In this document: positions 8,405 to 62,857 of the stretch, in pieces | Layout: every line of letters begins with the position of its first letter | Position numbering within the stretch: position 1 is the stretch's first letter | Assembly (NCBI RefSeq): GCF_015710975.1 | Contig: NZ_CP049783.1 | Coordinates: forward strand, 1,981,501 to 2,045,500 | Direction of reading: 5' to 3' | DNA from: Paenibacillus polymyxa | GTDB lineage: Bacteria > Bacillota > Bacilli > Paenibacillales > Paenibacillaceae | Length of the DNA: 64,000 bases | Position numbers and translations under genes: made by a program | Notes under the pieces: model-generated | The model's input: only the letters and a program-made list of their open reading frames with translations | Database searches by the model: none | What the model was told of the DNA's origin: nothing

Positions 8405-8415
8405 ATGAGGATATA

Positions 8416-11528: not shown

Positions 11529-11571
11529 GTCTCGCTCTTCCTGTCCGTAACAGAGAAGGGCGAGACTTTTT
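11529..11571. terminator. Bidirectional intrinsic terminator
   Basis: GTCTCGC (11529-11535) pairs with GCGAGAC (11560-11566), with an inner CTG/CAG stem, and TTTTT follows. It lies between the convergent aldo/keto reductase and membrane-protein genes. Confidence 0.75.
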
Positions 11572-12070: not shown

Positions 12071-12099
12071 GTACACGCAGGAACAAAAATGCTCAAATA

Positions 12100-12140
12100 T
12101 TTGGAAAAGCCCCCGGCACTTGTGCTGAGGGCATTTTTTG
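12100..12140 (-). terminator. Probable terminator of the Bce-type transporter genes
   Basis: On the minus strand GCCCTCAGCAC and GTGCCGGGGGC form an imperfect stem followed by TTTTCC. It lies 13 nt beyond the stop of the permease gene. Confidence 0.6.
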
Positions 12141-12152
12141 AATTTTTGCCAG

Positions 12153-14093: not shown

Positions 14094-14844
14094 ATTGGAC
14101 CCCGCCTAAGACCGCTTGGGTTTTCATGATATCCTGGAAGAAGCTCTGCCTTTCCTGCACGCCTTTATGAAGCTGCGTATACATTTGCCCATCCTTCATA
14201 AAAATGACTCGGCTGCAATGGCTGGCTGCAACAGGATCATGCGTGACCATAATAATAGTTGCTTTGCGCTTTTGGTTCAGCTGACCCAGCTTGTTTAATA
14301 GATCAGAAGCCGACTTCGAATCAAGCGCCCCCGTAGGTTCATCGGCAAAAATAATCGTAGGCTCATGAATAAACGCTCTAGCCGCAGATGTACGCTGTTT
14401 CTGTCCACCCGAAATTTCATTGGGATACTTGTCCTTGAGCTCATAAATCCCCAGCTCTGTAGCCACCGCCTGAAATCTTCGGTTGGCCTCTTTTTTAGGC
14501 GTTTTGGTGATAGATAGGGGCAAAAGGATATTCTCCTTCACGGTGAGCGTATCCAGCAGATTATACTCTTGAAAAATAAAGCCTAAATGCTGTTTGCGGA
14601 ATTCAGCCAGTTGCTTTTCTTTCATTTTCGTCATTTCGATATCATTGATCTTAATGGAACCGTGGCTTACTTTATCAATGGAGGAAAGGACATTTAGCAG
14701 AGTGGTTTTACCTGAACCGGAGGCTCCCATAATACTGACAAATTCACCTTCCTCAATAACGATATCTATTCCCTTCAAAACCTCCTGCATATTTAGCTTA
14801 TTACCATAGCTTTTGTGAATCTTATGGGCTTCTAAAATATTCAC
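14083..14844 (-). CDS. Bce-type ABC transporter ATP-binding protein
   Basis: This 253-residue ATPase has Walker [10 protein letters not shown] (about residues 39-47), the Q-loop in FIFQEYN, signature ISGGQKQR (about 144) and Walker [14 protein letters not shown] (about 165). It starts with GTG, nine nt after AAGGAG. It pairs with the overlapping FtsX permease. The peptide-resistance group (BceA, YxdL, PsdA) is the closest match; the drug cannot be read from sequence. Confidence 0.9.
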
Positions 14845-14876
14845 TTCGATGCACTCCTTATTGTTCTTGTAGCCTT

Positions 14877-14949
14877 ATTATAAAAATCGTGCCGATGCTT
14901 TTCCCTTGATTGGGCGAACAATACATAAAAGCATGTGACATCTCTGTCA
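14877..14949 (-). promoter_or_regulatory. Bce-type target promoter with BceR-like inverted repeat
   Basis: TGACA-TCTC-TGTCA (14936-14949) matches the TNACA-N4-TGTNA dyad known for BceR-like response regulators, within the longer palindrome GCATGTGACA/TGTCACATGC. A perfect -10 TATAAT lies at 14877-14882 on the minus strand, with a poor -35, as expected for a promoter needing an activator. The ATPase GTG is 33 nt further on. The same hairpin could also act as a terminator for the kinase gene, whose stop lies within it. Confidence 0.65.
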
Positions 14950-15951
14950 CATGCTCATCATACTTACGAAATCATTTCGTTTGGGGAAAATTAAAGTGAA
15001 GGTAGTACCCGTGTTCGGTTTGGAGTGCACATCTATATGTATGAGCAAGGACTGCGCTGCCTTTTTCGTTAAATATAACCCCATGCCTGTTGAAGTATGA
15101 TCGGAATGTTGGGTCGTGGATGTAAAACCTTTCTCGAAAATACGAGGTATATCCTTCGGATCAATCCCACGCCCAAAGTCTTGAACCTCAAGCTGTATTC
15201 GATCCTTATGTTCATAGCTGTGAATGATAATATCACTGGCATCGCTATATTTGATGGCATTGGTTAAGAACTGTCTGATGATAAAAGCTAGCCATTTGGC
15301 ATCACTTAGCACTTCCATTTGCTCAAGTCGGATGTCAAAACCGATCCCTTTTTGGATGCACCATGACTGTAATGCTTTGATCTCTTTAAAAACCAGAGAT
15401 TTTAAATCTACTTGCTCGACGTACAAATCGTTTTCAATAAAAGATATGCGCTTCTGGTGCAACTGTTGGTCCAGCAGTAAATGAATTCGCAGCCATTCAT
15501 AAGTTAGCTGAGCCTTAAGAGATTTGTCATCCAGTCGCTCAATCATCAAATGCATAGCGGTTAAAGGTGTTTTCACCTCATGAATCCATGATAACAGTTC
15601 ATCCTTTTCGTGTTCCAGAGTCAATTGATTTTGCGAGATCATCTGTTGTAGTCGTTCGGTCTGATGGACAATTTTGTGTTCAATGATTCGCTCAAATGGA
15701 CTTTCAGGTTCGCCCATTCCGGTTAATTGGAGAGGCCCCTCCCATTCTTCCAAGGCCCTATAGAACTTGGTTTCCTTGGGATAGCGAACGATTAAAAAAA
15801 CCAGGAAAACCAACATAGATAAGAAAACGACATACAGGATCGGCATTAACGGGATGGCCGTATCCACATAAGCAATGAGAAGGATCAGCATTTGTTGGCA
15901 TACAAAAAGTAGAATCCAGCTCCGCCTCTCTGTAAGGTATTTTTTAATCAT
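14947..15951 (-). CDS. Bce-type intramembrane-sensing histidine kinase
   Basis: The protein has about 334 residues from ATG 15951. Two membrane helices (about residues 10-30 and 35-55) are joined by a very short loop, as in BceS-type kinases that sense through the partner ABC transporter. The H-box is SWIHEVKTPLTAMHLM and the ATPase domain shows NAIKYS, DFGRGIDPKDIPRIFEKGF and TGMGLYL. The ATG overlaps the last codons of the response regulator gene by 8 nt, so the two are coupled. The open frame to 16002 lies inside the regulator gene. Confidence 0.87.
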   Translation of the reverse strand: MIKKYLTERRSWILLFVCQQMLILLIAYVDTAIPLMPILYVVFLSMLVFLVFLIVRYPKETKFYRALEEWEGPLQLTGMGEPESPFERIIEHKIVHQTERLQQMISQNQLTLEHEKDELLSWIHEVKTPLTAMHLMIERLDDKSLKAQLTYEWLRIHLLLDQQLHQKRISFIENDLYVEQVDLKSLVFKEIKALQSWCIQKGIGFDIRLEQMEVLSDAKWLAFIIRQFLTNAIKYSDASDIIIHSYEHKDRIQLEVQDFGRGIDPKDIPRIFEKGFTSTTQHSDHTSTGMGLYLTKKAAQSLLIHIDVHSKPNTGTTFTLIFPKRNDFVSMMSM

Positions 15952-48969: not shown

Positions 48970-48988
48970 ACAAGATATCAATTTCATA

Positions 48989-49062
48989 TGACTCGTATAA
49001 TATTGGGGATATGGCCCAAAAGTTTCTACCGGATGACCACTGTAATCGTCCGACTATGAGTG
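48989..49062 (+). ncRNA. Guanine-type purine riboswitch aptamer
   Basis: The purine-aptamer core is present: ACTCGTATAAT, then GGGGATATGGCCC (P2 and loop 2), AAAGTTTCTACCGG, a P3 arm, and CCGACTATGAGT. The loop pairs and junctions match the xpt aptamer of B. subtilis. The base before TATGAG is C, which pairs with guanine or hypoxanthine, not adenine. It lies 170 nt before xpt. Confidence 0.93.
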
Positions 49063-49131
49063 ATAGCGCATCAGCTTCGGATGAATGCGGGCATTTTATT
49101 TGTGCGCCAATCCGTCAGGGATTACGACCCC

Positions 49132-49232: not shown

Positions 49233-49850
49233 ATGAAAGCTTTGGAAGAACGTATTCGTCAAGAGGGACAAATTTTATCCGATACGGTGTTAAAGGTAGA
49301 TTCATTTTTGAACCATCAGGTGGATACAGCATTAGCATTGGAGATTGGTAAGGAGTTCGCACGTCTGTTCGGCAGTGCTCCAATTACCAAGGTGCTTACT
49401 ATTGAAGCTAGTGGTATTCAATTTGCTATGGCCACTGCTATTGCTTTGGGAGTACCGTTCATTTATGCGAAGAAAAAGAAGGCGATCACGCTGAATGAAC
49501 AGGTATACTTTGCAGAGGTTCATTCGTTCACTCGGCAGGAAACCTATCAGGTGAGCATTTCCCAAAAATATCTCGATGCCAGCGACCATGTGCTGATCGT
49601 GGATGATTTTTTGGCTACTGGCGCAGCTTTGGTCGGACTTACCGATATTGTGAAGGAAGCAGGAGCAGAGCTGGCCGGAGTTGGCTGCGTAATTGAAAAG
49701 AGCTTTCAGGAAGGCCGTGGACTGTTGGAGCAAAGAGGCATTGCCGTACGTTCTCTGGCGCGTATCGCTTCCATGGCACCGGGCGAAGTTCATTTTATAG
49801 AGGAAGCTGGCACGGTAATTCCTCCCGTTAAGGAGAATGTGGGATGTTAA
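49233..49850 (+). CDS. xpt: Xanthine phosphoribosyltransferase
   Basis: This 205-residue protein starts MKALEERIRQEGQ and has the PRPP-binding loop VLIVDDFLATGAALVGL (about residues 125-141) and KKKKAITL near residue 80. It salvages xanthine to XMP. It is the first gene of xpt-pbuX behind a guanine riboswitch, as in B. subtilis, and its stop overlaps the pbuX start by 7 nt. Confidence 0.95.
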   Translation: MKALEERIRQEGQILSDTVLKVDSFLNHQVDTALALEIGKEFARLFGSAPITKVLTIEASGIQFAMATAIALGVPFIYAKKKKAITLNEQVYFAEVHSFTRQETYQVSISQKYLDASDHVLIVDDFLATGAALVGLTDIVKEAGAELAGVGCVIEKSFQEGRGLLEQRGIAVRSLARIASMAPGEVHFIEEAGTVIPPVKENVGC

Positions 49851-51151
49851 GTAAACAAAAATTATTTGCGCTGGGTTTCCAGCATGTCATGGCGATGTAC
49901 GCCGGAGCTATTGCTGTTCCTCTGATTGTAGGGGGAGCGCTGCACCTGACGCCAGCCCAGATGGCCTATCTAGTGGCTGCTGATTTATTCACTTGCGGGA
50001 TTGCTACGTTATTACAAATTATGGGCACACGCTTTTTCGGTAGTAGACTTCCCGTCATTTTGGGCTGTACGTTTACAGCAGTAGGACCTATTATCGCGAT
50101 TGCTTCGACATCAAATCTGGCGACAGCGTACGGTGCCATCATTTTGTCCGGTATATTTGTGGTGCTTGCGGCACCGTTGTATGGCAAACTGTTACGCTTT
50201 TTCCCAACAGTGGTTACCGGCTCGGTCGTTACGATTATCGGTCTATCCCTTATTCCGGTGGCGATGAACAATGTAGCGGGTGGTCAGGGCAGCGCGGATT
50301 TTGGACAGCCGCGTAATTTGCTGCTGGCGCTGGTTACACTACTGGTTATTCTGCTTGTCAATCGAGTAGCCAAGGGCTTTTTACGCTCGATTTCCGTTCT
50401 TATTGGTCTGTTCGCAGGTACTGTAGTCGCCTATGCGATGGGAATGGTGCATTTTGCTCCCGTAGCGGATGCTTCGTGGGTGAGTATTGCGCAGCCGTTT
50501 TATTTTGGCAAGCCGGAGTTTAGCATTATGGCAGTATGTACGATGATTATCGTCAATATTGTGAGCATGGTCGAGTCTACAGGGGTTTATCTGGCAGTAG
50601 GTAAAGCGATTGATCAGAAAGTGGAGCAAAAGCAAATCGTCAATGGACTTCGTTCGGAAGGACTTGCGATTATGTTGGGCGGTATTTTTAATGCGTTCCC
50701 TTACACGGCCTTCTCCCAAAATGTGGGTCTGATCTCGCTGACTCGCGTCAAATCACGTAACGTTATTTTTGCTGCGGGCGGCATCATGGTCGTCCTCGGT
50801 TTGCTGCCTAAGCTGGCTGCCTTGACGACAGTGATTCCTAACGCTGTGCTGGGCGGGGCGATGATCGTCATGTTTGGCTCGGTTGCTGCATCAGGCATGT
50901 CTATTTTGTCAGAAGTGGATCTGCGGAAAGAAAGCAATCTGCTGATTGCAGCATGCAGTATTGCCGTGGGCCTAGGCTCAGCTGTTCTGCCGCAAATGTT
51001 CGACCAACTGCCGAGCTTTGCCAAAATGCTGCTGCAAAACGGCATCGTATCTGGCTCGATTACGGCAATTGTCTTGAACATTGTTTTGGCAAGAAAACAG
51101 GGTGAATCGGTCAAAGGCGTTAATGTCTCAGAAGTTCCACAGAAGGTTTGA
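49844..51151 (+). CDS. pbuX: Xanthine permease
   Basis: This 435-residue nucleobase/cation symporter-2 (NCS2) protein has about 12-14 helices. The motifs QHVMAMYAGAIAVPLIVGGAL near residue 14, a central VSMVESTGVYLAVGKA (the conserved Glu region) and NAFPYTAFSQNVGLISLTRVKSR match PbuX. It takes up xanthine with protons for Xpt, and the two genes overlap. Confidence 0.94.
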   Translation: MLSKQKLFALGFQHVMAMYAGAIAVPLIVGGALHLTPAQMAYLVAADLFTCGIATLLQIMGTRFFGSRLPVILGCTFTAVGPIIAIASTSNLATAYGAIILSGIFVVLAAPLYGKLLRFFPTVVTGSVVTIIGLSLIPVAMNNVAGGQGSADFGQPRNLLLALVTLLVILLVNRVAKGFLRSISVLIGLFAGTVVAYAMGMVHFAPVADASWVSIAQPFYFGKPEFSIMAVCTMIIVNIVSMVESTGVYLAVGKAIDQKVEQKQIVNGLRSEGLAIMLGGIFNAFPYTAFSQNVGLISLTRVKSRNVIFAAGGIMVVLGLLPKLAALTTVIPNAVLGGAMIVMFGSVAASGMSILSEVDLRKESNLLIAACSIAVGLGSAVLPQMFDQLPSFAKMLLQNGIVSGSITAIVLNIVLARKQGESVKGVNVSEVPQKV

Positions 51152-51590: not shown

Positions 51591-51722
51591 ATGGTCAACC
51601 TTGTGTCGTGCTATGATGTGCTGCGTTGGATGGTTACGTTACTAAGCCTGGTGTTTAGTATTCGTAAGCTTTATCGCTGGCTGCGTCGGAAATTTCGGAA
51701 CAAGCGAAAACCCACCGCGTAA
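51591..51722 (+). CDS. 43-residue hydrophobic/basic peptide, type I toxin-like
   Basis: ATG 51591 follows a very strong ribosome site, AAAGGGGGTGA, and the frame runs 43 codons to TAA. The product begins MVNLVSCYDVLRW, continues as one hydrophobic helix (MVTLLSLVFSI, about residues 14-24) and ends in a basic tail (RKLYRWLRRKFRNKRKPTA). A terminator hairpin begins inside the last codons. Short size, one helix, basic tail, structured 3' end and isolated position resemble the small holin-like type I toxins of Firmicutes. I know no exact family; an antisense RNA cannot be proven by eye. Confidence 0.55.
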   Translation: MVNLVSCYDVLRWMVTLLSLVFSIRKLYRWLRRKFRNKRKPTA

Positions 51723-52005: not shown

Positions 52006-52034
52006 TTGACAAGCCAGTAGCAACAAAATAAGAT
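52006..52034 (+). promoter_or_regulatory. Promoter of the cobalamin-riboswitch transcript
   Basis: TTGACA (52006-52011), a 17-bp spacer and TAAGAT (52029-52034) lie about 40 nt before the riboswitch. Between 51850 and 52005 I see no gene. Confidence 0.65.
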
Positions 52035-52074
52035 AATCCTAAATCGTAATAAAAAGGAATAAAGGAAGAAAACA

Positions 52075-52310
52075 GGTGTGAGCCGGACAACTCTATATAC
52101 GAAGTTTCGTAGAGACGATGTAGATAGTTGTTGAGCGTGTTCACTTAAAAGGGAAGTTCGGTAGATTCCGACACGGACCCGCCACTGTATACAGGCATCA
52201 GCAGGGTACTGCTGGAGCTTTCAGAACAAGCCACTGGAACTGTGAGGAACCGGGAAGGCCTGAAAGATACGCTTGGAGTCAGGAGACCTGCCTGTTTTGA
52301 CATCACTGTC
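52075..52310 (+). ncRNA. Cobalamin (B12) riboswitch
   Basis: The conserved pieces occur in the right order: AAAAGGGAAGTTCGG (about 52146), GATTCCGACACGGACCCGCC ACTGT (about 52164-52190), AAGCCACTGG, CCGGGAAGGCC with GATACGC after it, and the B12 box near 52278-52294 (GGAGTCAGGAGACCTGCC). This is the cobalamin riboswitch, which lowers expression when coenzyme B12 is bound. It stands before a NikABCDE-type importer, not a cob gene. Confidence 0.92.
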
Positions 52311-52428
52311 AGACCCACGGGATGCTGGGGAGGTGGTTAGGCGTGCTGCATACGGAATGTCTGAAACCGATCTGATCCCTTCTATGTTTTTGGAGCTGGC
52401 TTTGAGGTGAGTTTTGACATTTTATAAT

Positions 52429-52473
52429 GAAAGCATTTCTGACTGCTGATCAAGTGGTTGGGAATGCTTTTTC
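52429..52473 (+). terminator. Probable expression-platform terminator of the riboswitch
   Basis: AAAGCATTTC (52430-52439) pairs with GGAATGCTTT (52461-52470), followed by TTT. It lies between the B12 aptamer and the first importer gene, as expected for control by premature termination. Confidence 0.65.
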
Positions 52474-52525
52474 GCGTTTTGCGTTAGGTTTATACGATTT
52501 TACAAGATAGAGGGGGAAATGTGGG

Positions 52526-54109
52526 ATGATAGGCAATCGTAATAGGCGTTCATGGTTCATATGTACAGGATTGCTGCTGCTGATGGCAGTTATGACTCTT
52601 TCGGGATGTGGCGCAGCCACGAAGACGGAGGATAGCTCGGGCAAGGGTGAGAACACGTCTGCACAACAGACTCAAGCAGATAAAAAGCTGGTGATGGCGT
52701 ATACGTGGAAACCGTCAGGCGTCGATCCGCATGGAGATAATAGCTGGGATGTGATGCGTTCCGGTGCCGGTGAGACACTCATTCGTTTGAATGAAAAACT
52801 GGAACCTGTAGCTTGGCTAGCCAAGGAATGGAAGCATGATAGTCCTAATGTGTGGTCGTTCAGCGTGCAGGATAAGGTCACGTTTCATAATGGAAAGAGC
52901 ATGGATGCAGTAAGTGTAAAAGCATCTTTGCTGCGCTCAATCGAAAAAAGCCATCTGGCGAAGGATTTACTGGATGTGAAGTCCATTGATGTAACTGGTC
53001 CGCTGACGCTGAAAATTACGACAAACCAGCCGAATGCAGCGCTGGTATCCAATTTGGCTGATCCGTCAACGATTGTACTGGATGTGGCATCCATGAAAGA
53101 TGAGCAGAGCTACCCTGCAATGACAGGTGCTTTTAAAATCAAAGCCTTCAACAAGGATCAATCCTTGGTCGTCGAGCGTTATGACGGATACTGGGGCGAA
53201 AAGGCGCGCTTGGCCGAAGCGACGATGAAATTCATTACGGACGGTAATTCGCGCCTGATGGCGTTGCAATCTGGTGAGGTGGATGTAGCGACGGATATTC
53301 CGGTAGATAACGCAGAGGTATTAAAAAAGAACGACAAGCTACAAGTGCTGTCGGCTCCATCCTTGCGCACCCATATGATTGTGTACAACATGGAATCACC
53401 TGTGTTCAAGGATGCAACCAACCGTAAGGTGGTGGACAGTCTGATTCCGCGCGCGTCCATTGTGAGCGCCGTCATGAGAGGCTTCGGTACGGAAGCAAGC
53501 AGCCCGTTTCCGAGCATTCTTCCCTTCGGTAAGATTGAGCGTAAAGCATTGGACGGAACGACGGAGCAGTTGTTGACGAAGGATGGCTGGCAGAAGGATG
53601 CCCAAGGTACGTGGACCAAGCAGGGTAAGCCATTCGAGGTTACGCTGCTGACCTTCCCTCAGCGTCCAGAGCTATCCGTCATGGCTGAGGTGATTCAGAG
53701 CCAATTGCTGAATGAGGGAATCCAGGTCAAGATTCGCAAGGTGGAAAATATCGACGAGGCATTGACCAAAAATGATTGGGATTTTGCTATGTACAGCATG
53801 CTCACGGCCCATACAGGGGAGCCGCAGTATTTTATGGACATGTTCTACTCTTCTACAAGTGAAGCGAATGTAAGCCGTTATGCTTCCAAACCGCTGGAGA
53901 ATATTCTTCACAGCCTGAAGTTGGCAAAGGATACCGCACAGCGTAATGCGGTAACACTGCAAGCGCTGGATATCATCAATACAGATTTGCCGCAGTCGTT
54001 CATTGTGCACCCTGACAATGTGTTTGGTGTGAAAAAAGGAGTAAAGGGCTTTACACCGCATCCGATCGAGTATTACTACATTACAGCGCAATCCGATATT
54101 GCGGAATAA
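52526..54109 (+). CDS. NikA/OppA-type solute-binding lipoprotein (B12-riboswitch operon)
   Basis: This 527-residue family 5 binding protein has a signal peptide with lipobox LSGC (Cys about residue 28), then a Ser/Thr/Gln-rich linker. Family patterns: ETLIRLNEKLEPVAWLAKEWKHDSPNVWSFSVQDKVTFHNGKSMDA near residue 82, GYWGEKARLAEATMKFI near 215, and a NikA-like C-terminus. It resembles NikA/CntA, which bind nickel, cobalt or metal-chelator complexes. It is the first gene of a five-gene operon after a cobalamin riboswitch, so cobalt uptake is the leading guess. Confidence 0.85.
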   Translation: MIGNRNRRSWFICTGLLLLMAVMTLSGCGAATKTEDSSGKGENTSAQQTQADKKLVMAYTWKPSGVDPHGDNSWDVMRSGAGETLIRLNEKLEPVAWLAKEWKHDSPNVWSFSVQDKVTFHNGKSMDAVSVKASLLRSIEKSHLAKDLLDVKSIDVTGPLTLKITTNQPNAALVSNLADPSTIVLDVASMKDEQSYPAMTGAFKIKAFNKDQSLVVERYDGYWGEKARLAEATMKFITDGNSRLMALQSGEVDVATDIPVDNAEVLKKNDKLQVLSAPSLRTHMIVYNMESPVFKDATNRKVVDSLIPRASIVSAVMRGFGTEASSPFPSILPFGKIERKALDGTTEQLLTKDGWQKDAQGTWTKQGKPFEVTLLTFPQRPELSVMAEVIQSQLLNEGIQVKIRKVENIDEALTKNDWDFAMYSMLTAHTGEPQYFMDMFYSSTSEANVSRYASKPLENILHSLKLAKDTAQRNAVTLQALDIINTDLPQSFIVHPDNVFGVKKGVKGFTPHPIEYYYITAQSDIAE

Positions 54110-54124
54110 CGAGCAACGTATCCT

Positions 54125-55054
54125 ATGATTCGTTTTATATTGGAACGTGTGGCGCAGCTGCCCATCATTGTATTCGTTGTATCTACGCTGACTTTTATAC
54201 TGATGAGGCTGGCCCCTGGTGACCCTGCTCTCATTTTGCTCACCGCGCATAATGTTCCTGCTTCTGGGGAGGCGCTAACCGCGCTGCGAAACGAACTGGG
54301 CTTGAATGAGCCGCTTCATATTCAATATGTGAACTGGCTGAGGGATGTGTTCACAGGACATTGGGGAACCTCGTATGTGTCCAAGGAGTCAGTGCTAAAC
54401 GAACTATGGAGCAGACTGCCCGCCACGGTGGAGCTAGCTTTGGCGGGCTTTGCCGTCATGGCGGTGCTTACGCTTGGGATGGGACTGGCTGCCTCGCTAA
54501 AAGTCAGCGGTCCACTAGATCGTCTGGGCAGGCTGTTCGCTTTGCTGGGATCGTCAATTCCTTCTTTTTGGCTTGGGTTTCTGCTGATCTATCTATTTTC
54601 CGTTCGCTTGGGCTGGCTCCCATCCATGGGAAGGGAGGACTGGTCACATTTAGTACTCCCAGCGCTGACGCTTGGTGCAGGATTGGGAACGGTGCAAGCC
54701 CGTGTATTGCGTGCTCAGATGCTGGAGCTGAGTGACCGGAATTTTGTGAAGGCAGCGAGGGCTCGCGGTTTTTCACGTATGCATATTCTCTTTTTTGAGA
54801 TATTTAAACATGCCGTTCTGCCTATGATCACGCTGTTAGGTACGAATCTATCATTTATGCTGGCAGGTAACGTCATCGTAGAAACCATTTTTTCATGGCC
54901 AGGGTTAGGAAAGTATTTTATAGATGCAATTACGCAGCGGGATTACCCGGTGATTCAGGGATATGTTATGTTTGCCGCGTTTTTAATTGTAGGTGTTCAG
55001 TGTTTGGTGGATGTGGTCCAGACGGTGATAGATCCAAGGCTGCGTTTGCGTTAA
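54125..55054 (+). CDS. NikB/OppB-type permease (first importer)
   Basis: This 309-residue permease has six predicted helices. The inner-membrane signature for the ATPase is KAARARGFSRMHILFFEIFKHAVLPMITLLG (about residues 205-235). GDPALILLTAHNVPASGEALTALRNELGLNEP near residue 35 is typical of the NikB/DppB group. It starts 16 nt after the binding-protein gene and pairs with the NikC-type gene that follows. Confidence 0.9.
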   Translation: MIRFILERVAQLPIIVFVVSTLTFILMRLAPGDPALILLTAHNVPASGEALTALRNELGLNEPLHIQYVNWLRDVFTGHWGTSYVSKESVLNELWSRLPATVELALAGFAVMAVLTLGMGLAASLKVSGPLDRLGRLFALLGSSIPSFWLGFLLIYLFSVRLGWLPSMGREDWSHLVLPALTLGAGLGTVQARVLRAQMLELSDRNFVKAARARGFSRMHILFFEIFKHAVLPMITLLGTNLSFMLAGNVIVETIFSWPGLGKYFIDAITQRDYPVIQGYVMFAAFLIVGVQCLVDVVQTVIDPRLRLR

Positions 55055-55068
55055 GGGGGAAGCTGAAA

Positions 55069-55884
55069 ATGAAAAAGATACGGCTTTCCTTTAGAGGAAG
55101 CTTGCTGGCAGGGGGCGCACTGTTTGGCCTGATCGTGCTGCTTGGGTTGCTGGCTCCCTGGGCCGCTCCGCATGATCCTCTGCATGTGGACCTTCTGAAC
55201 CGTTTGGTACCACCCAGCCGTAAATATCCTTTCGGTACGGATCATCTGGGTCGGGATGTGCTGTCACGACTCATTTATGGAATTCGGACAAGCGTATTAA
55301 TCGCTTGTGCGATTACGGTAGCTACGCTGTGTATTAGTCTGCCCACAGGCATGCTCATTGGTTATGTGCGAGGACGTGTGGATCAGCTGATTATGCGGGG
55401 AATCGACGGCGTACTGGCTTTTCCCGATATTATTTTAACGGTGGCGATTGTGGGTATTTTGGGCCCGGGTTTCGTCAACATGACCTTAGCGATTATTGCA
55501 GTACGGTGGGCGGGCTATGTCCGCTATATCCGTAGTTTGGTTCAAAAAGCCTGCCAGGAGGACTATGTACGGTATGCCCGTTTGTCCGGCAATTCACACG
55601 TGCGCATACTAAGACGTTATGTATTGCCACAAGTATGGCCGCAATTATTGGTATATGCGGTATGGGATATTGGACACGTGGTGTTAATGATCGCTGGACT
55701 CTCCTTTCTTGGACTGGGTGTACAGCCGCCCAAGCCAGAGTGGGGCGTGATGCTGCATGATGCAACCTCGTATTTTCAGGTGGCTCCGCATGTTATGATC
55801 TTTCCGGGTTTGGCGATTATGCTGTTTGTGCTTGCCTGCCAGCTTCTGGGTGATCATTTTTCAGAAAAGGGGGCGGCGAAATAG
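55069..55884 (+). CDS. NikC/OppC-type permease (first importer)
   Basis: About 271 residues from ATG 55069 after AAGGGGG; the open frame upstream lies inside the preceding gene. The N-terminus APWAAPHDPL and YPFGTDHLGRDVLSRLIYGIRTS are OppC/NikC hallmarks. DYVRYARLSGNSHVRILRRYVLPQVWPQLLVY is the ATPase-contact loop. Its stop overlaps the following GTG by one base. Confidence 0.9.
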   Translation: MKKIRLSFRGSLLAGGALFGLIVLLGLLAPWAAPHDPLHVDLLNRLVPPSRKYPFGTDHLGRDVLSRLIYGIRTSVLIACAITVATLCISLPTGMLIGYVRGRVDQLIMRGIDGVLAFPDIILTVAIVGILGPGFVNMTLAIIAVRWAGYVRYIRSLVQKACQEDYVRYARLSGNSHVRILRRYVLPQVWPQLLVYAVWDIGHVVLMIAGLSFLGLGVQPPKPEWGVMLHDATSYFQVAPHVMIFPGLAIMLFVLACQLLGDHFSEKGAAK

Positions 55885-56801
55885 TGGGAAAACGACCAGT
55901 CATAGGGTGGAAGGATACGATAGAGCGAGCTTACGTACAAAAACCGTTGTTACACGTGGAACATTTGGAGATTAGTCGTACAGGTGCAGGAGCAAGCGGA
56001 AGCGAGAGCAATCCGCTACTGCGAGATGTGAACTTTTCCGTCTACCCAGGGGAAATTGTGGCTCTGACTGGACCAAGTGGATGTGGCAAGAGCCTGACCG
56101 CACACGCAATCGCGGGTATGCTGGACCCAAGTGTTGGTGTTACACAAGGTTGCATCTACTATAACGGGGAAGACATTATCCCGTTCCATGAACAGCGCTG
56201 GCAAAGACTGCGCCGTGAGGATATTGCCCTGCTCATTCAACAATCGCTGAGCGGGCTGAACCCGATCCGTACCGTCCGCGCCCAGCTGACGGATACGCTT
56301 AGACTGCACAGGCGGCGCCAAATGCACTCCCAGAAGGAGCAGGGCCAGGCTGATCTTGCCCCGTCCCACACTGCATCACAGCAGACCCATCGACGACAGG
56401 GCGTAATGTCACGGATGCGACAGATGCTGAACCGTGCCACGGAGCTGGCTGGAGGCCGCACTACTCCAGGGCAGGAAGCTTATTTGTGTTCTCTGCTCCG
56501 CAAGGTCGGTTTTGCCGATCCTGAGTATATTCTGTCATCATATCCTTTTGAACTAAGCGGAGGTATGTGCCAAAGGGTGCTGCTGGCTGCAATGTTAAGC
56601 TCCGGCCCGCGCCTCTTTATTGCCGACGAGCCCACTACAGCGCTGGATGTGATCAACCGCGACAAGGTTCTGTCATTGCTTTTACAGTTGAGAGAGGATT
56701 TCGAGCTCACTATTTTGTTAATTTCACATGATCGCCAGGGTATGAGTCGCGTAGCAGATCGAGTACTGGAGATGACCCCGGAAGGAAGGATGCAACCGTG
56801 A
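55884..56801 (+). CDS. NikD/OppD-type ATP-binding protein with a long insertion (first importer)
   Basis: This 305-residue ATPase starts at GTG overlapping the previous stop. Walker A is GPSGCGKS (about residues 64-71), the signature is LSGGMCQRV (about 223) and Walker B is LFIADEPTTALD (about 243). Between the Q-loop (LLIQQSLSGLNPIRT) and the signature lies an extra stretch of about 55 residues rich in Gln, His, Arg and Ser (about 140-195), not usual in NikD. The frame stays open and the family motifs on both sides are intact. Confidence 0.86.
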   Translation: MGKRPVIGWKDTIERAYVQKPLLHVEHLEISRTGAGASGSESNPLLRDVNFSVYPGEIVALTGPSGCGKSLTAHAIAGMLDPSVGVTQGCIYYNGEDIIPFHEQRWQRLRREDIALLIQQSLSGLNPIRTVRAQLTDTLRLHRRRQMHSQKEQGQADLAPSHTASQQTHRRQGVMSRMRQMLNRATELAGGRTTPGQEAYLCSLLRKVGFADPEYILSSYPFELSGGMCQRVLLAAMLSSGPRLFIADEPTTALDVINRDKVLSLLLQLREDFELTILLISHDRQGMSRVADRVLEMTPEGRMQP

Positions 56802-57577
56802 TATTGGAATTGAAGAACGTCACCAAAGCTTATCCTGTCCGCAGACGAAGAAATGGCTGGTTCAACACGAGACGGGGTGAGCAACAGGCAATAAAGAAAG
56901 TGAGCCTGGAATTACGACAGGGAGAATGCCTTGGACTGGTTGGAGAAAGCGGAAGTGGCAAAAGCACGCTGGCACAGTGTATCCTGGGGCTAGAGTCGTT
57001 GACCTCGGGGGAAATCTGGCTGAATCAGCAGCCCATACATACCGGAAGGATGAAAGATATTCATCTGTACAAACGAATTCAGTTAGTCACGCAGGACTCG
57101 GCCTCCTCACTGCATCCCCGTATGACCATTCGAGATATTCTGATGGAGCCGATCTGCAACTATTTTCCTGAGCGAAAAGTGAGGGCACTGGATATCTGCC
57201 TTTCCTTACTGGAATCGGTAGGGTTAGAGGCTGACAGTCTGAAAAAATACCCTGCGCAGCTAAGCGGTGGACAAAAACAGCGGGTGTGCATTGCTCGGGC
57301 GTTGGCCGTTGAACCAGAAATCATCCTGTTCGATGAATCCGTTGCCAATCTGGATACGACAACCCAGTCCTCCGTGCTGAACATGCTCAAAAGAATGCAG
57401 CTCGAACGTCAGTTGTCCTATCTTTTCATCACCCATGATCTTCAATCCACCCGTACGTTCTGTGATCGTGTTGCCGTCATGGTTCAGGGAGAGATCGTGG
57501 AAATATTTGAGGATTGGGATGAAGAGCTAGTGAAGCATGAATACACGCGTACTCTATTTCAAACGTTGGCGGATTAA
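56798..57577 (+). CDS. NikE/OppF-type ATP-binding protein (first importer)
   Basis: This 259-residue ATPase has Walker A GESGSGKST (about residues 48-56), the signature LSGGQKQRV (about 153) and Walker B IILFDESVANLD (about 173). RRRRNGWFNTRRGEQQAIKKVSLEL is the usual OppF/NikE start. It overlaps the NikD gene by 4 nt and ends the first importer operon. No terminator is visible after it. Confidence 0.88.
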   Translation: MILELKNVTKAYPVRRRRNGWFNTRRGEQQAIKKVSLELRQGECLGLVGESGSGKSTLAQCILGLESLTSGEIWLNQQPIHTGRMKDIHLYKRIQLVTQDSASSLHPRMTIRDILMEPICNYFPERKVRALDICLSLLESVGLEADSLKKYPAQLSGGQKQRVCIARALAVEPEIILFDESVANLDTTTQSSVLNMLKRMQLERQLSYLFITHDLQSTRTFCDRVAVMVQGEIVEIFEDWDEELVKHEYTRTLFQTLAD

Positions 57578-57637: not shown

Positions 57638-57692
57638 TTGACAAAATATAATGTGGTACCTATTCTAAATATGATTATGATAATCATTATCA
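57638..57692 (+). promoter_or_regulatory. Promoter overlapped by two interleaved Fur boxes
   Basis: TTGACA (57638-57643), a 17-bp spacer and TATTCT (57661-57666) form the promoter. TGATTATGATAATCA (57672-57686) and TGATAATCATTATCA (57678-57692) are each perfect 7-1-7 palindromes, offset by 6 bp, as for two Fur dimers. The second matches TGATAATNATTATCA exactly. Bound Fur would cover the transcription start. Confidence 0.85.
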
Positions 57693-57719
57693 CATATATA
57701 GAAAAGGGGAAATACATTG

Positions 57720-59345
57720 ATGTCCGTTCGACACCGCAAGACTGCCACCTTTATGTTGGTGACGCTCCTCTTATTATCCGTTATTCTGGGCTGCGCGAAG
57801 CAGGAGAACACACCTGCATCCACCTCTACTAACGGAGCTGCCAATGAAAAGTCGATCACGCTATCGTGGCCACGGGACATTGGTACAATGAATCCTCACG
57901 TATACAACCCTTCCCAGCTATTTGCACAATCCATGATTTATGAGCCGTTAGTCAGCTACAAGCAAGGAGGCAAGCTAGAGCCTGCTTTGGCTGAATCTTG
58001 GACCATATCCAAGGACGGCAAGACATATACGTTTAAGCTGCGTAAAGGTGTGAAATTTTCCGATGGAACGCTATTTAATGCGGCGATTGTGAAAAAGAAC
58101 TTTGACGCCATTATGAAAAATGAGAAAACGCATAGCTGGCTTGGTATAGTAGGCGTTCTCGACAAAACTGAAGCTGTAGATGACAGTACGTTCCGAATGA
58201 CGCTCAAAGAGCCATACTACCCAGTTATTCAGGATCTGTCTGTCGTTCGCCCGTTCCGTTTTTTGGGTGAAGCCGGGTTCCCGGATGATGGAGATACGTC
58301 CAAAGGAATTAAGAAACCTGTAGGTACAGGACCTTGGATGCTGGATGAATACAAGCAGGATGAGTATGCAACCTTTAAGCGTAACCCGAATTATTGGGGT
58401 ACTGCACCGAAGATGGACAAAATTACGGTCAAAATTATTCCCGATGGTGAAACACGTGTAATGGCCTTTGAAAAAGGCGACCTGGATCTGATTTATGGAG
58501 AAGGTGTTATTAGCCTGGATGCTTTCAAACAGCTTCGCGACACGAATCAGTATGTTACCACGCTGTCCGAGCCTGTCGGCACAAGAAGCCTGTTGCTCAA
58601 CTCCTCCAATCCCAAGCTGGCAGACCTTCGGGTACGTCTGGCACTCCAGCATGGATTTAACAAACAGGCGATGGTGGAAGGCGTAACCTCGGGGCTGGAG
58701 GAAACAGCGGATACGGTTTTATCCAAAAACTACCCGTATACGAATGTCGACTTACAGCCAATAGGCTATGATGTGGAAAAATCCAAAGCATTGTTGGATG
58801 AGGCTGGCTGGAAGCTGCCCGCAGGCGGCACAGTACGAGAGAAAGATGGACAACAGCTGGATTTTGAGCTGATTTTCGATAAGACCGATCCGATCCAGAA
58901 GGCGATGGCTGAAACCATTCAGGCTGAATGGGGAGAGCTGGGTGTCAAAGTGAATCTGACCGGACTGGAGCTGACGGTTCAAATCAAGCGGCTTAGATCC
59001 AACCAGTTTGATCTGTATTTCTGGTACAACTACGGTGCGCCTTATGATCCGCATTCCTTTATTAATGTTATTGCCAAGAAGAGCTTCGGAATTTCTGAGG
59101 TGCTGAGCGCCCTTCCGATGAAGAAGGATCTGGATCAGCAAGTACACGAAGCACTTTCATCGACAGACGAAACCAAGCGTCAGGAGCTGTACGCCTCAAT
59201 CTTGAAGACACTTCAGAAGCAATCTGCAATTGTACCTATTTCGTATATTAAGAAGACGGCAGTGTATCAGAAAAAGATTACTAATTTTGTATTCCCAGCT
59301 AATCGGGATGAAAATCCATTTGAGGGAATTGAAATTGGAAAGTAA
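57720..59345 (+). CDS. NikA/CntA-type solute-binding lipoprotein (Fur-box operon)
   Basis: About 541 residues from ATG 57720 (AAAAGGGG upstream; TTG 57717 is also possible). The lipobox LGC lies at about residue 25. SITLSWPRDIGTMNPHVYNPSQLFAQSMIYEPLVSY is the NikA-like start of the mature protein; FKRNPNYWGTAPKMDKITVKIIPD follows near residue 220. It closely resembles NikA-type proteins that bind nickel or chelated metals. With the consensus Fur site it may bind an iron-chelate or opine-type metallophore complex; this is inference. Confidence 0.86.
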   Translation: MSVRHRKTATFMLVTLLLLSVILGCAKQENTPASTSTNGAANEKSITLSWPRDIGTMNPHVYNPSQLFAQSMIYEPLVSYKQGGKLEPALAESWTISKDGKTYTFKLRKGVKFSDGTLFNAAIVKKNFDAIMKNEKTHSWLGIVGVLDKTEAVDDSTFRMTLKEPYYPVIQDLSVVRPFRFLGEAGFPDDGDTSKGIKKPVGTGPWMLDEYKQDEYATFKRNPNYWGTAPKMDKITVKIIPDGETRVMAFEKGDLDLIYGEGVISLDAFKQLRDTNQYVTTLSEPVGTRSLLLNSSNPKLADLRVRLALQHGFNKQAMVEGVTSGLEETADTVLSKNYPYTNVDLQPIGYDVEKSKALLDEAGWKLPAGGTVREKDGQQLDFELIFDKTDPIQKAMAETIQAEWGELGVKVNLTGLELTVQIKRLRSNQFDLYFWYNYGAPYDPHSFINVIAKKSFGISEVLSALPMKKDLDQQVHEALSSTDETKRQELYASILKTLQKQSAIVPISYIKKTAVYQKKITNFVFPANRDENPFEGIEIGK

Positions 59346-59390
59346 CTGAAACGGGAAGGTAACGTTAATTTACAGGATAGGAGGACAACT

Positions 59391-60335
59391 ATGATTAGCT
59401 ATATCGGGAAGCGAATGGTAGCGGTCATTCCTATTGTTCTCTTTGCCACCCTCGTTACCTTTGCACTCATTCATATTTCACCGGTTGATCCGGCTGAAGC
59501 TTATTTGACGGCTGCTCATATTTATCCTACCCCGGAAATTCTGGAGCAGAAGAGGCATGAGTTCGGGCTGGATCAGCCATTGCTGACACAGTATATGCAT
59601 ACACTTCAAAGAATCAGTCGGTTGGACTTTGGTGCTTCGTATCTGACCAACAAGCCAGTGTGGGATGAGGTGAAGGCTCGATTGCCTGCCACTGTTGAGC
59701 TGGCCTTAAGCAGCATGTCATTATCCATCGTGGTGAGCATCCCGCTGGGTGTGTTGGCGGCGATGCGTAAAAATGGCTGGATCGACATACTGAGTCGAGG
59801 GATTTCGTATTTCGGGGCATCTATTCCCCAGTTCTGGCTGGGATATTTGTTAATCTTCTTTTTCTCTGTACGATTGGACTGGCTACCTGTAGAGGGTCGG
59901 GGAACGTGGCAGCATCTGGTGTTGCCGACGTTGACTCTGTCGCTGGTTCTGATTGCTTTATATACGCGCCTGTTGCGCTCCAGTGTGCTGGAACAGCTTC
60001 AGGAAACGTATGTCCAGTATGCCAGAACCAGAGGAATACGCGAGCGTATGATTATGCTCAGGCACATACTCAAAATGGCCATTACTCCGCTAATAACAAG
60101 TATGGGCATGAACCTGGGCAAGTTGCTGACTGGAACGATTATTGTGGAGCAGGTGTTTTCATGGCCTGGGTTTGGCCGTTATTTCGTGGAAGCCATTTTT
60201 AACCGGGATATTCCCGTCATACAATGCTATGTGTTTTTGGCGGCATGCCTGTTCATCGTATGCAATTTGCTCGTTGATCTGGTGCATTTGTATATGGACC
60301 CCCGAATTTCTTCGAAGGGACGAGCAGAGCAGTGA
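59391..60335 (+). CDS. NikB-type permease (second importer)
   Basis: This 314-residue permease has six predicted helices. HISPVDPAEAYLTAAHIYPTPEILEQKRHEFGLDQPL near residue 27 and YVQYARTRGIRERMIMLRHILKMAITPLITSMG near residue 205 are the NikB hallmarks. AGGAGG stands before the ATG. It overlaps the next gene by 4 nt. Confidence 0.9.
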   Translation: MISYIGKRMVAVIPIVLFATLVTFALIHISPVDPAEAYLTAAHIYPTPEILEQKRHEFGLDQPLLTQYMHTLQRISRLDFGASYLTNKPVWDEVKARLPATVELALSSMSLSIVVSIPLGVLAAMRKNGWIDILSRGISYFGASIPQFWLGYLLIFFFSVRLDWLPVEGRGTWQHLVLPTLTLSLVLIALYTRLLRSSVLEQLQETYVQYARTRGIRERMIMLRHILKMAITPLITSMGMNLGKLLTGTIIVEQVFSWPGFGRYFVEAIFNRDIPVIQCYVFLAACLFIVCNLLVDLVHLYMDPRISSKGRAEQ

Positions 60336-61165
60336 TGATAAGGTTGCGTAAAATGTTCAAAGGTCAAAAGGTAATCGTGGTTTGCTCTGTCGTGCTGGTA
60401 GCCCTTTTTATCATAATGGCGCTGGCTCCGTGGCTAGCTCCCCATGATCCGGTTAAAGTCAATTTACTGCATAAGCTGGAAGGCCCCTCAAAAGAGTATT
60501 GGCTGGGAACGGACCATCTGGGTCGGTGTAATCTGTCCCGGCTACTGTATGGAGCGCGAATTTCGCTCGGCTTTGCGACATTAATTTTCTTGTCCTCGCT
60601 TAGTATCGGTGTTGTGATCGGATCAGTTGCAGGTTATTTGGGCGGTTGGGTCGATAGTGTACTGATGCGATTTTGCGAAGGCATTATGGCGTTTCCCAAC
60701 TTGGTGCTTGTGCTCGGCATTGTTGGTATTTTTGGGCCAGGTCTCATGCAGGTGCTGTTTGCCTTGATGCTGGTGCAGTGGGTGTACTATGCCCGAATGT
60801 GCCGCAATATGGTCGTCAGTCTGAAAGAGCAGAATTTTATAGCGGCCGCAAGGATTAGCGGCTCCTCCTCAGGGGCCATTATCCGGCGGCACATCATTCC
60901 GAATGTGCTGCGGCCGCTTGTGGTCATTGGTACGCTGGAGATGGGCTGGGCGATCATGGATATCTCCGCGTTGTCATTCCTGGGTCTAGGCATCCAGCCG
61001 CCGACTCCTGAATGGGGAGCCATGATCCATGAGGGAACGGGATACATCCGCAGTCATCCGGAATTAATGATTTATCCGGGTTTCATGATTCTGGTGGTGG
61101 TAATGGCCTTCAATATATTGGGAGAGGCGTTGTCCGACCGATATGGAATTGCCAAACGTCAGTAA
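60332..61165 (+). CDS. NikC-type permease (second importer)
   Basis: This 277-residue permease has an N-terminal helix with APWLAPHDPVKVNLLHKLEGPS, then YWLGTDHLGRCNLSRLLYGARISLG (the NikC signature, with Cys after GR in place of the usual Asp). FIAAARISGSSSGAIIRRHIIPNVLRPLVVIG is the ATPase-contact loop. It overlaps the NikB gene by 4 nt. Confidence 0.9.
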   Translation: MMIRLRKMFKGQKVIVVCSVVLVALFIIMALAPWLAPHDPVKVNLLHKLEGPSKEYWLGTDHLGRCNLSRLLYGARISLGFATLIFLSSLSIGVVIGSVAGYLGGWVDSVLMRFCEGIMAFPNLVLVLGIVGIFGPGLMQVLFALMLVQWVYYARMCRNMVVSLKEQNFIAAARISGSSSGAIIRRHIIPNVLRPLVVIGTLEMGWAIMDISALSFLGLGIQPPTPEWGAMIHEGTGYIRSHPELMIYPGFMILVVVMAFNILGEALSDRYGIAKRQ

Positions 61166-61184
61166 AACAGGAGTGAGGACAACG

Positions 61185-62006
61185 ATGGATGACACAGCCA
61201 AGACGCAGGTGCTGGAGGTCAGTGGCTTACAGGTAAAGCTCAAAACTGATGCAGGGGCGGTATCTCTGCTGGAACCTATCCATTTTGAACTGAAAAAGGG
61301 GCGGGTTCTGGGTCTTGTCGGCGAGAGTGGTAGCGGTAAAACAGTAACCTGTAACGCACTGCTCCAGCTACTGGATCGCCAGACGATGGATGTGGAAGGC
61401 AGTGTTCGTCTGAACGGACGTGAGTTGAATGGAATGCCAGCCGAGGAGATGCGCCGCATTCGGGGCAAGGAAATTGCTTTTATTATGCAAAATCCGATGA
61501 GGGCTTTTACGCCAGTATATACGATTGGGGATCAGTTTATGGAAACGATCCGCACGCATACCGGATTAAGTAAACGACAGGCCCGTGATCTTGCCATAAC
61601 AGCTCTGGAAAATATGAATTTGCCCGATCCAGCCAAGCTGATGAAGCGTTATTCGTTTCAGTTGAGTGGCGGGATGCTGCAACGAGTCATGATCGCTATT
61701 TCCATGTGCCTGCGGCCAGCAGTAGTTATTGCCGATGAACCAACGACGGCGCTTGATGTGGTCAATCAGCTACAGGTGCTAAGAGAGCTGGACCGCTTGC
61801 GTACGGAATACAATACGTCCATTTTGCTGATCTCGCATGATCTGGGCGTCATTTCCCAATTGGCGGATGAAGTGGCTGTCATGCAGCAGGGGCGTATTGT
61901 TGAGCAGGCTGAGGTCCACCAGCTGTTCGATCATCCGCAGGATGAATATACAAAAATGCTGTTGCAGGCCAGACCTAAGTTGTCCCTTCAGGGCATAAAT
62001 CAGTAG
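61185..62006 (+). CDS. NikD-type ATP-binding protein (second importer)
   Basis: About 273 residues from ATG 61185, 16 nt after AGGAG and close to GAGGA; the frame is open to 61143. Walker A is GESGSGKTV (about residues 42-50), the signature LSGGMLQRV (about 159) and Walker B VVIADEPTTALD (about 180). It lacks the long insertion seen in the first importer. It lies 19 nt after the permease gene. Confidence 0.88.
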   Translation: MDDTAKTQVLEVSGLQVKLKTDAGAVSLLEPIHFELKKGRVLGLVGESGSGKTVTCNALLQLLDRQTMDVEGSVRLNGRELNGMPAEEMRRIRGKEIAFIMQNPMRAFTPVYTIGDQFMETIRTHTGLSKRQARDLAITALENMNLPDPAKLMKRYSFQLSGGMLQRVMIAISMCLRPAVVIADEPTTALDVVNQLQVLRELDRLRTEYNTSILLISHDLGVISQLADEVAVMQQGRIVEQAEVHQLFDHPQDEYTKMLLQARPKLSLQGINQ

Positions 62007-62047
62007 GGCGATGAGTTGCCTGTTGGATACTTTCAAAAGGGGAGCGA

Positions 62048-62857
62048 ATGCATGTGCTGCAAGTGAAGGAAGTAACTCATAGCTATAGAAAGCGCAAATG
62101 GCTGGGCCGCTCCGAATCACGTCTTCCTGTGCTCACTGATGTGTCGCTTACCATAGAGAGCGGATTTTGCCTAGGACTGCTTGGAACCAGTGGAGCGGGT
62201 AAAAGCACGCTCGGCAAGGTTATTCTAGGGCTGGAGAAGCCGCAGGAGGGTCAGGTGCTGTTTCAGGGGCAGGACATCTATAATGGAAGTCCTCAAGTAC
62301 GCAGGGGATTGCGACGGGATATGCAGGTTGTATTCCAGGACTGCTATTCTGCTGTAAACCCTCGCATGACCGCCGGACAGATTATCGGAGAGCCTTTGGA
62401 CAATTACGAGCGGTTATCAGTGCAGGAACAAAAAAGAACGGTAGAAAATCTGCTGGAGCGGGTGGGTCTTAAGCCGGAGGATCGGAATAAATATCCGCAT
62501 CAATTCAGCGGCGGACAATTACAGCGGATTAACATTGCACGGGCGATTGCGCTCAGACCCAAGCTGATCGTGCTGGATGAGTCCGTCAGCAGTCTGGATA
62601 TGGTTCATCAGATGCGTATTTTATCCCTGTTGGAAGAGCTGAAAACTTCATTTGGATTGTCATATCTGTTTATCACACATGATATTCGAGCGGCTTACGC
62701 CGTCTGTGATGGCATTGCTGTGATGGAACAAGGGAAATTAGTCGAGCACTGTGCTGAGAAAGATCAGATTTTTGAATCTGCTCACCCGGCTGTGCAACGT
62801 TTAATTTCGTCCATTTTGCCGGAGCATCCAGCAGACCGTCTTCCACTTCATAGATAA
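62048..62857 (+). CDS. NikE-type ATP-binding protein (second importer)
   Basis: This 269-residue ATPase has Walker A GTSGAGKST (about residues 50-58), the signature FSGGQLQRI (about 155) and Walker B LIVLDESVSSLD (about 175). VTHSYRKRKWLGRSESRLPVLTDVSL is a NikE/OppF-type start. AGGGGAG precedes the ATG. It closes the second operon, and a terminator follows. Confidence 0.88.
   Translation: MHVLQVKEVTHSYRKRKWLGRSESRLPVLTDVSLTIESGFCLGLLGTSGAGKSTLGKVILGLEKPQEGQVLFQGQDIYNGSPQVRRGLRRDMQVVFQDCYSAVNPRMTAGQIIGEPLDNYERLSVQEQKRTVENLLERVGLKPEDRNKYPHQFSGGQLQRINIARAIALRPKLIVLDESVSSLDMVHQMRILSLLEELKTSFGLSYLFITHDIRAAYAVCDGIAVMEQGKLVEHCAEKDQIFESAHPAVQRLISSILPEHPADRLPLHR

What the first reader, a model, noticed from the sequence alone, without database searches (positions are those of the whole stretch)
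52006..57577. Cobalamin riboswitch in front of a complete NikABCDE-type importer
A clear B12 aptamer (core about 52146-52294) with a terminator-like platform at 52429-52473 precedes five genes for a NikA-type binding protein, two permeases and two ATPases. The B12 riboswitch is known to control cobalamin synthesis and cobalt or B12 transport. Its use on a Nik/Opp-type system makes this a strong candidate cobalt importer, or a carrier of a corrinoid precursor or cobalt chelate, rather than a peptide or nickel transporter.
Basis: partly seen in the sequence, partly recalled or inferred. Interest (0 to 1): 0.72.

Follow-up and report, generated by a model that had tools for sequence, protein, structure and literature searches.

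The report
B12-switched cobalt importer in Paenibacillus
A vitamin-B12-sensing RNA switch sits in front of five genes for a membrane importer, and comparison with related genomes indicates that the importer brings in cobalt for making vitamin B12, a known idea that is here given much stronger support and a newly outlined protein family.

Summary
Rfam finds a full-length cobalamin riboswitch at 52105-52309 (67.9 bits, cut-off 31.5), followed by an intrinsic terminator at 52429-52476 and five open genes (52526-57577) for an Opp/Nik-type ABC importer. The cobalt reading is supported. The binding protein belongs to a distinct clade, class A, that misses both curated NikA cut-offs. Of 33 named class A loci, 29 have their own riboswitch and 4 lie in cob/cbi gene runs; all 33 genomes encode CbiD. 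In the genus, a riboswitch-led Nik-type importer (class A, or class B with gene order BCADE) occurs in 41 of 42 CbiD+ and 0 of 33 CbiD- genomes; the exception has CbiM. In 11 CbiD- genomes the riboswitch survives beside fragments of the operon. This fits cobalt supply for de novo synthesis, not corrinoid import. CbiM, NicO and HupE/UreJ were not found here. B12-riboswitch NikABCDE was already predicted in two clostridia (PMC2667541), so the kind is known. Metal, ligand and B12 response are unmeasured.

The parts
52006..52034 (+). candidate sigma-70 promoter (TTGACA-17-TAAGAT)
   Evidence: consensus scan, 10 of 12 matches; position upstream of the aptamer
52105..52309 (+). cobalamin riboswitch aptamer
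   Evidence: RF00174, 67.9 bits, gathering score 31.5, full length
52329..52384 (+). hairpin that would hide the antiterminator strand (inferred)
   Evidence: -15.3 kcal/mol hairpin; a similar pairing is part of the minimum-energy fold together with the terminator
52332..52348 (+). antiterminator strand, complementary to the 5' arm of the terminator (inferred)
   Evidence: duplex -16.0 kcal/mol with 52431-52446, 1 of 200 shuffles as good; p<=0.05 in 18 of 29 leaders
52429..52476 (+). intrinsic terminator of the riboswitch
   Evidence: 19-pair stem, -23.0 kcal/mol; changes on both sides of 7 of 11 pairs in 26 leaders
52526..54109 (+). substrate-binding lipoprotein (class A, NikA/Opp5A-like)
   Evidence: PF00496; NF045468 462 bits, cut-off 600; nearest solved structures 3t66 and S. 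aureus NikA
54125..55054 (+). permease, NikB-like
   Evidence: NF045470 Opp2B 406 bits, cut-off 350
55069..55884 (+). permease, NikC-like
   Evidence: NF045474 Opp2C 301.8 bits, cut-off 300; TIGR02790 307.9 bits, cut-off 358
55884..56801 (+). ATPase, NikD-like, with an extra stretch of about 50 residues
   Evidence: PF00005; TIGR02770 181 bits, cut-off 319; comparison with relatives
56798..57577 (+). ATPase, NikE-like
   Evidence: PF00005; TIGR02769 243 bits, cut-off 333

Best explanation
The operon encodes an Opp/Nik-type ABC importer that supplies cobalt, probably as a small-molecule chelate caught by the binding lipoprotein, to the cell's own cobalt-early (CbiD-type) B12 pathway. When adenosylcobalamin is plentiful it binds the nascent leader, the antiterminator strand (52332-52348) stays hidden, the terminator (52429-52476) forms and transcription stops before the first gene. 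When B12 is scarce, the antiterminator pairs with the terminator's 5' arm and the importer is made. Shown here: the aptamer, the terminator, the complementary antiterminator strand, the five open genes, the family-wide link to B12 genes, the co-occurrence with CbiD and the co-loss. Inferred: ligand binding, the direction of the switch, cobalt as the substrate, the chelate form.
For: Riboswitch and genes. In the genome's other three places the riboswitch precedes metE, a cbi operon with CbiH, CbiD and CobB, and btuFCD-like genes with cobT. The genome has CbiD but no match to CbiM, NicO or HupE/UreJ. Class A: own riboswitch in 29 of 33 named loci. The other 4 (no RF00174 at E<=1) lie in cob/cbi gene runs: L049 directly after cbiD...uroporphyrinogen methyltransferase; L052, L057 and L060 between BluB and cob(I)yrinate adenosyltransferase (HMM-checked in L049 and L052). 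CbiD in 33 of 33 of these genomes. Genus: 41 of 42 CbiD+ against 0 of 33 CbiD- genomes. All 37 riboswitches that one search lists for CbiD- genomes were read downstream: 12 lead to metE, 12 to btuFCD-cobT, 11 to remains of a class B operon, 2 to genes not identified, none to an intact Nik-type operon.
Against: No metal, ligand or expression data. The genus counts are not phylogenetically independent, and one search listed 37 of the 59 riboswitch matches that its table counts for CbiD- genomes; 22 weaker ones were not seen. CbiM is also present above its cut-off in 6 of 33 named class A genomes and in 2 of the 41 genus genomes, so the importer is not only a substitute for CbiMNQO. One class A genome, G007, has a clear NicO protein. 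Class N NikA-like proteins are also commoner in CbiD+ genomes (39 of 42 against 19 of 33, p 5e-4), though far more weakly. A class B relative without riboswitch in a CbiD- genome sits beside a urea transporter and a NicO protein, which suggests nickel there. CorA and unspecific routes were not tested.
Confidence: 0.82

Rival explanations
1. The importer carries a corrinoid or corrin precursor (salvage).
For: B12 riboswitches also control salvage importers such as the btuFCD-like genes of this genome.
Against: Not found, or reduced to fragments, behind the listed riboswitches of the CbiD- genomes of the genus, many of which keep a B12 riboswitch before btuFCD-cobT; salvage should be most needed there. 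The nearest relatives of known structure are nickel-binding proteins, some with histidine chelates, and the only Pfam match is SBP_bac_5.
Confidence: 0.06
2. A dual nickel/cobalt importer whose B12 control reflects cobalt need, but which also supplies nickel.
For: Nearest structures are nickel-binding; a class B relative lies beside urea transport and NicO genes.
Against: B12 control and strict co-occurrence with CbiD give no role to nickel; urease alpha is not found in this genome; the genome has a class N paralogue that passes the nickel cut-off and a second NikABCDE.
Confidence: 0.1
3. An ordinary oligopeptide importer that happens to follow a riboswitch.
For: The Opp/Dpp/Nik superfamily is shared.
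Against: Linkage to B12 genes is conserved in 33 of 33 named loci of many genera, and peptide-importer profiles score far below Opp5A_nikA.
Confidence: 0.02

Closest known systems
B12-riboswitch-preceded NikABCDE of Clostridium tetani and Desulfitobacterium hafniense (predicted, PMC2667541, passages read)
   Same: Nik-type ABC importer behind a B12 riboswitch, set apart there from the nickel-specific members for that reason.
   Different: Those are predictions for two Clostridia; whether their NikA falls in class A, B or another group was not tested. Here a clade spread over many Bacillales genera, a conserved terminator switch, gene linkage, CbiD co-occurrence and co-loss are added.
Staphylococcus aureus NikA (4ofj, 4xkr) and Bacillus halodurans 3t66
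   Different: 28-31% identity; the loop PRGD of that class (class N) is HTG(D/E/S)P in class A; no B12 riboswitch in 18 of 19 class N loci scanned.
CbiMNQO
   Same: Cobalt importer of B12 operons (PMC7689651, passages).
   Different: An ECF transporter without a separate substrate-binding protein; CbiM not found in this genome.
CbtJKL of Sinorhizobium meliloti
   Same: ABC cobalt importer under an adenosylcobalamin riboswitch (PMC7689651, passages).
   Different: Its CbtJ is similar to BtuF; here the binding protein is SBP_bac_5.
NiCoT-type gene bmd_0328 of Priestia megaterium
   Same: Cobalt transporter behind a B12 riboswitch in Bacillales (PMC8390425, passages).
   Different: A single-component transporter, not an ABC importer. 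The same paper mentions a further riboswitch-linked 'uncharacterized transporter' (bmd_0512) whose type the passages do not tell; it could be a Nik-type system.

Membership tests
Cobalamin riboswitch (RF00174) | score above the curated gathering score over the whole model | tested here: met
   67.9 bits, cut-off 31.5, positions 1-189
Cobalamin riboswitch (RF00174) | expression platform that could respond to the aptamer | tested here: met
   terminator and complementary antiterminator strand; the switching itself is not shown
Cobalamin riboswitch (RF00174) | binding of a cobalamin and change of expression | not testable with these tools
   needs in-line probing or a reporter
Opp/Nik-type ABC importer | SBP_bac_5 protein, two BPD_transp_1 permeases, two ABC ATPases, all open | tested here: met
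NCBIfam NikA (NF045468 Opp5A_nikA; TIGR02294) | score above the curated cut-off | tested here: not met
   462 bits against 600; 141 against 393. The own-genome paralogue passes NF045468, 704 bits
NCBIfam Opp2B/Opp2C nickel permeases (NF045470, NF045474) | score above the curated cut-off | tested here: met
   406 against 350; 301.8 against 300
NCBIfam NikD/NikE ATPases (TIGR02770, TIGR02769) | score above the curated cut-off | tested here: not met
   181 against 319; 243 against 333
CntA staphylopine-metal binding protein (NF047575) | score above the curated cut-off | tested here: not met
   98.8 against 800
BtuF-type corrinoid binding protein | match of the binding protein to a BtuF or other corrinoid family | tested here: not met
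   the only Pfam match at E<=0.001 is SBP_bac_5; no BtuF model among the 11 NCBIfam matches
B12-controlled NikABCDE of C. tetani and D. hafniense | same clade of binding proteins | not tested
   those sequences were not identified in the data fetched
Cobalt importer | binds or transports cobalt | not testable with these tools
   needs binding and uptake assays

The most novel reading that the evidence does not exclude
Classes A and B are dedicated importers of a cobalt chelate, recruited more than once from nickel-type Opp5/NikA ancestors, with a binding pocket altered in the same loop (PRGD of class N; TG.P with a preceding H or I in A and B) and in W61, W74 and H121. Bacillales would then have a widespread, overlooked cobalt-chelate uptake family that stands and falls with the CbiD pathway.
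Probability: 0.35. Interest if true: 0.65.

Novelty: new member of a known kind. Interest (0 to 1): 0.45.

Why it matters
39 of the 42 CbiD+ genomes searched in this genus have no CbiM match, so how they take in cobalt was not evident. The finding names the likely importer, shows that annotation by similarity as nickel or peptide transport would mislead, and gives simple tests. The riboswitch left behind where importer and pathway are gone is a natural experiment on how a regulon decays.

Tried and rejected
Corrinoid-carrier and peptide-importer readings were weighed and set aside (see rivals). A first antiterminator guess (52308-52313 with 52321-52326, note) was replaced by the stronger, conserved pairing. 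In my terminator scan all 30 leaders gave a hairpin-plus-T-run at -8 kcal/mol or better, but shuffled leaders often did too (0 to 7 of 10 each; mononucleotide shuffles), and in the window and L039 it chose another hairpin, so the claim rests. L039 was left out (29 of 30 leaders); one search used 26 of the 30 (left out: L039, L042, L058, L068). The antiterminator was not significant (p>0.05) in 11 of 29.

The class-wide sample (348 genomes) held class A in only 3 genomes, so no co-occurrence test was made there. Of 19 class N loci scanned for a riboswitch (18, L075), one, L083, has one about 440 bases upstream, and its genome is CbiD+; so the PRGD loop does not exclude B12 control. Twelve of these 19 were called class N by identity and the PRGD loop, not by tree. 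CbiD is present in 5 of the 11 genomes whose class N loci lie outside the genus and lack a riboswitch, so class N without riboswitch also occurs with CbiD.

The tree gives class A, class B and class N as separate groups but leaves their order open. It was built from 102 of 103 rows (P0100, 393 residues, dropped). Trees of genes next to the class B site mix intact and relic loci: udk alone (33 of 35 loci, read by eye) and two genes (24 of 35 loci, at least 4 losses). They disagree with each other, so the number of losses is unsettled. The structure model (mean pLDDT 79) was used only to find relatives; ligand residues were not derived, and no paper with the term SaNikA was found. Papers at two recalled DOIs, taken to be the original B12-regulon and nickel/cobalt-transporter surveys, are not held.

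Class B was assigned by identity (30-33%) and alignment end (519-522), not by tree, for 23 of 27 genomes. 24 of the 26 with a riboswitch were searched for gene content and match all five genes (in L141 the second permease matches over 66% only); a 25th, G017, does too; G071 was not read. The 33 named loci and the 75 genus genomes overlap: seven of the named loci are close relatives in this genus (L038-L043, L068) and several are evidently the same genomes, so the two counts must not be added.
Full report
WHAT IS THERE. Rfam finds a complete cobalamin riboswitch at 52105-52309 on the + strand (67.9 bits, cut-off 31.5, E 1.2e-14). A promoter-like site starts at 52006. After the aptamer comes a 19-pair hairpin, 52429-52471, -23.0 kcal/mol, with a T-rich tail. 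Then follow five open genes: a binding lipoprotein (52526-54109), two permeases (54125-55054, 55069-55884) and two ATPases (55884-56801, 56798-57577).

THE SWITCH. In the window and 29 named class A leaders a hairpin with a T-run follows the aptamer (shuffles often reach the loose threshold, so this alone is weak). An alignment of 26 of these terminators keeps 11 pairs, 7 of them with one or two sequences changed on both sides and still paired; up to 3 sequences break a given pair. A strand just after the aptamer (52332-52348 in the window) is complementary to the terminator's 5' arm; its duplex energy beats dinucleotide shuffles at p<=0.05 in 18 of 29 leaders (window: -16.0 kcal/mol, p 0.005). 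A competing hairpin, 52329-52384, would hide that strand. This is the layout of a transcription-terminating riboswitch; that B12 favours the terminator is inferred from known cobalamin riboswitches.

LINK TO B12 SYNTHESIS. All 33 class A loci found in named genomes were scanned. 29 have a cobalamin riboswitch just upstream: 20 of 24, 7 of 7 (L038-L043, L069), 2 of 2 (L068, L070). The four without one, L049, L052, L057 and L060, show none at E<=1 either. In all four the importer lies in a cob/cbi gene run: in L049 directly after cbiD and, last, a uroporphyrinogen-III methyltransferase; in L052 between BluB and cob(I)yrinate adenosyltransferase/CobQ (HMM-checked; the adenosyltransferase scores just below its cut-offs); L057 and L060 read the same by eye. 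In L053 and L058 the importer is followed by a second riboswitch and a cbi operon (CbiH checked in L058). All 33 genomes encode CbiD; 6 of 33 also encode CbiM above the cut-off.

GENUS TEST. 75 genomes of the genus were searched for the binding protein, the riboswitch, CbiM, CbiD and NicO. Class A occurs in 15 genomes, each with the riboswitch upstream (14 from the lists, 203-227 bases; G008). Class B occurs in 27; 26 have a riboswitch 1965-2135 bases upstream of the binding-protein match, with two permease genes between. Together, 41 of 42 CbiD+ genomes and 0 of 33 CbiD- genomes have such an operon (Fisher p 1.7e-20, not corrected for kinship). The one CbiD+ genome without it, G074, has CbiM. 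Class N is also more common with CbiD, but weakly (39 of 42 against 19 of 33). In CbiD- genomes no class N or class B hit lies within 5 kb of a listed riboswitch, but the list was cut: 37 of 59 riboswitch matches in CbiD- genomes were listed.

CO-LOSS. I read the stretch downstream of all 37 listed riboswitches of CbiD- genomes (29 of the 33 genomes). 12 lead to metE, 12 to btuFCD-cobT, 2 (L108, L159) to genes I did not identify, and 11 to the class B site, where the riboswitch is kept but the operon is gone. tblastn finds fragments of the first permease in 10 of these 11 and of the last ATPase in one (L115); the eleventh, L103, matches intact operons only in leader and flanking DNA. The 24 intact class B loci searched match all five genes. 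So CbiD and the importer are missing together while the riboswitch lingers. The marker trees suggest several losses but disagree with each other.

EXCEPTIONS THAT TEACH. The class B operon of G031 has no riboswitch, in a CbiD- genome, and lies beside UrtBCDE and a NicO protein, a nickel-like setting. L083, a class N member by its loop, has a riboswitch about 440 bases upstream and its genome is CbiD+. Both fit a view in which the metal served follows the regulation and the need of the host, and B12 control has been gained more than once.

OTHER ROUTES FOR COBALT. The genome has no match to CbiM, NicO or HupE/UreJ, and no urease alpha. CorA was not tested. It has a second NikABCDE operon at 57717-62857 whose NikA passes TIGR02294 (740 bits, cut-off 393) and which is preceded by a perfect Fur-type box (the label is recalled).

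WHAT WAS KNOWN. PMC2667541 (passages) states that NikABCDE members of C. tetani and D. hafniense were predicted to be preceded by a B12 riboswitch and names them as the exceptions to nickel specificity. PMC3766115 (passages) lists cobalt transporters as a category of cobalamin regulons. PMC7689651 (passages) reviews CbtJKL and CbiMNQO. PMC8390425 (passages) describes a cobalt/nickel transporter gene behind a B12 riboswitch in P. megaterium, and another riboswitch-linked uncharacterized transporter, bmd_0512, of untold type. PMC9600662 (passages) gave nothing on cobalt transport. In the listings of paper searches I saw no title or abstract start about a B12-controlled Nik-type importer in Paenibacillus or other Bacillales; only open-licence full texts were searched, long lists were shown in part, and only the named papers were opened, in passages.

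VERDICT. Observation confirmed, interpretation supported. The kind is known; the Bacillales family, its switch, its link to B12 synthesis and the co-loss are additions. Transport of cobalt itself is inferred.

Noticed in passing
57678-57692 and operon 57717-62857: A second NikABCDE-type operon directly follows; its NikA passes the nickel equivalog TIGR02294, and a perfect 7-1-7 Fur-type box (label recalled) lies before it, also found in 5 of 7 related loci (L039, L040, L042, L043, L068). Possibly an iron-regulated nickel-type importer beside a B12-regulated one.
   Followed up: partly
L103, L113-L117, L119-L122, L127: Cobalamin riboswitches left in place after loss of the class B importer operon, in genomes without CbiD.
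   Followed up: partly
L123 (G031), 5742-15743: Class B importer without riboswitch in a CbiD- genome, beside UrtBCDE urea transporter genes and a NicO-family gene.
   Followed up: partly
L083 (G196): A class N (nickel-type) binding protein with a cobalamin riboswitch about 440 bases upstream, in a CbiD+ genome.
   Followed up: partly
48973-49076 and 49233-51151: Purine riboswitch (RF00167, 72.8 bits) before two genes that read as a xanthine phosphoribosyltransferase and a xanthine permease (names by eye).
   Followed up: no
55884-56801: The NikD-like ATPase of the window and its closest relatives carries an extra stretch of about 50 residues between the Walker A and signature motifs, not seen in L044, L045, L049 or L070.
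   Followed up: no
51591-51722: Small open frame (43 residues, hydrophobic middle and basic tail); it might be a small membrane peptide or toxin.
   Followed up: no
L108 (G015) and L159 (G044): Cobalamin riboswitches followed by genes I did not identify (a 766-residue and a 1294-residue frame).
   Followed up: no
L060, 10422-11283: The second permease of this class A operon is split over two frames in this draft genome: a sequencing error or a broken gene.
   Followed up: no
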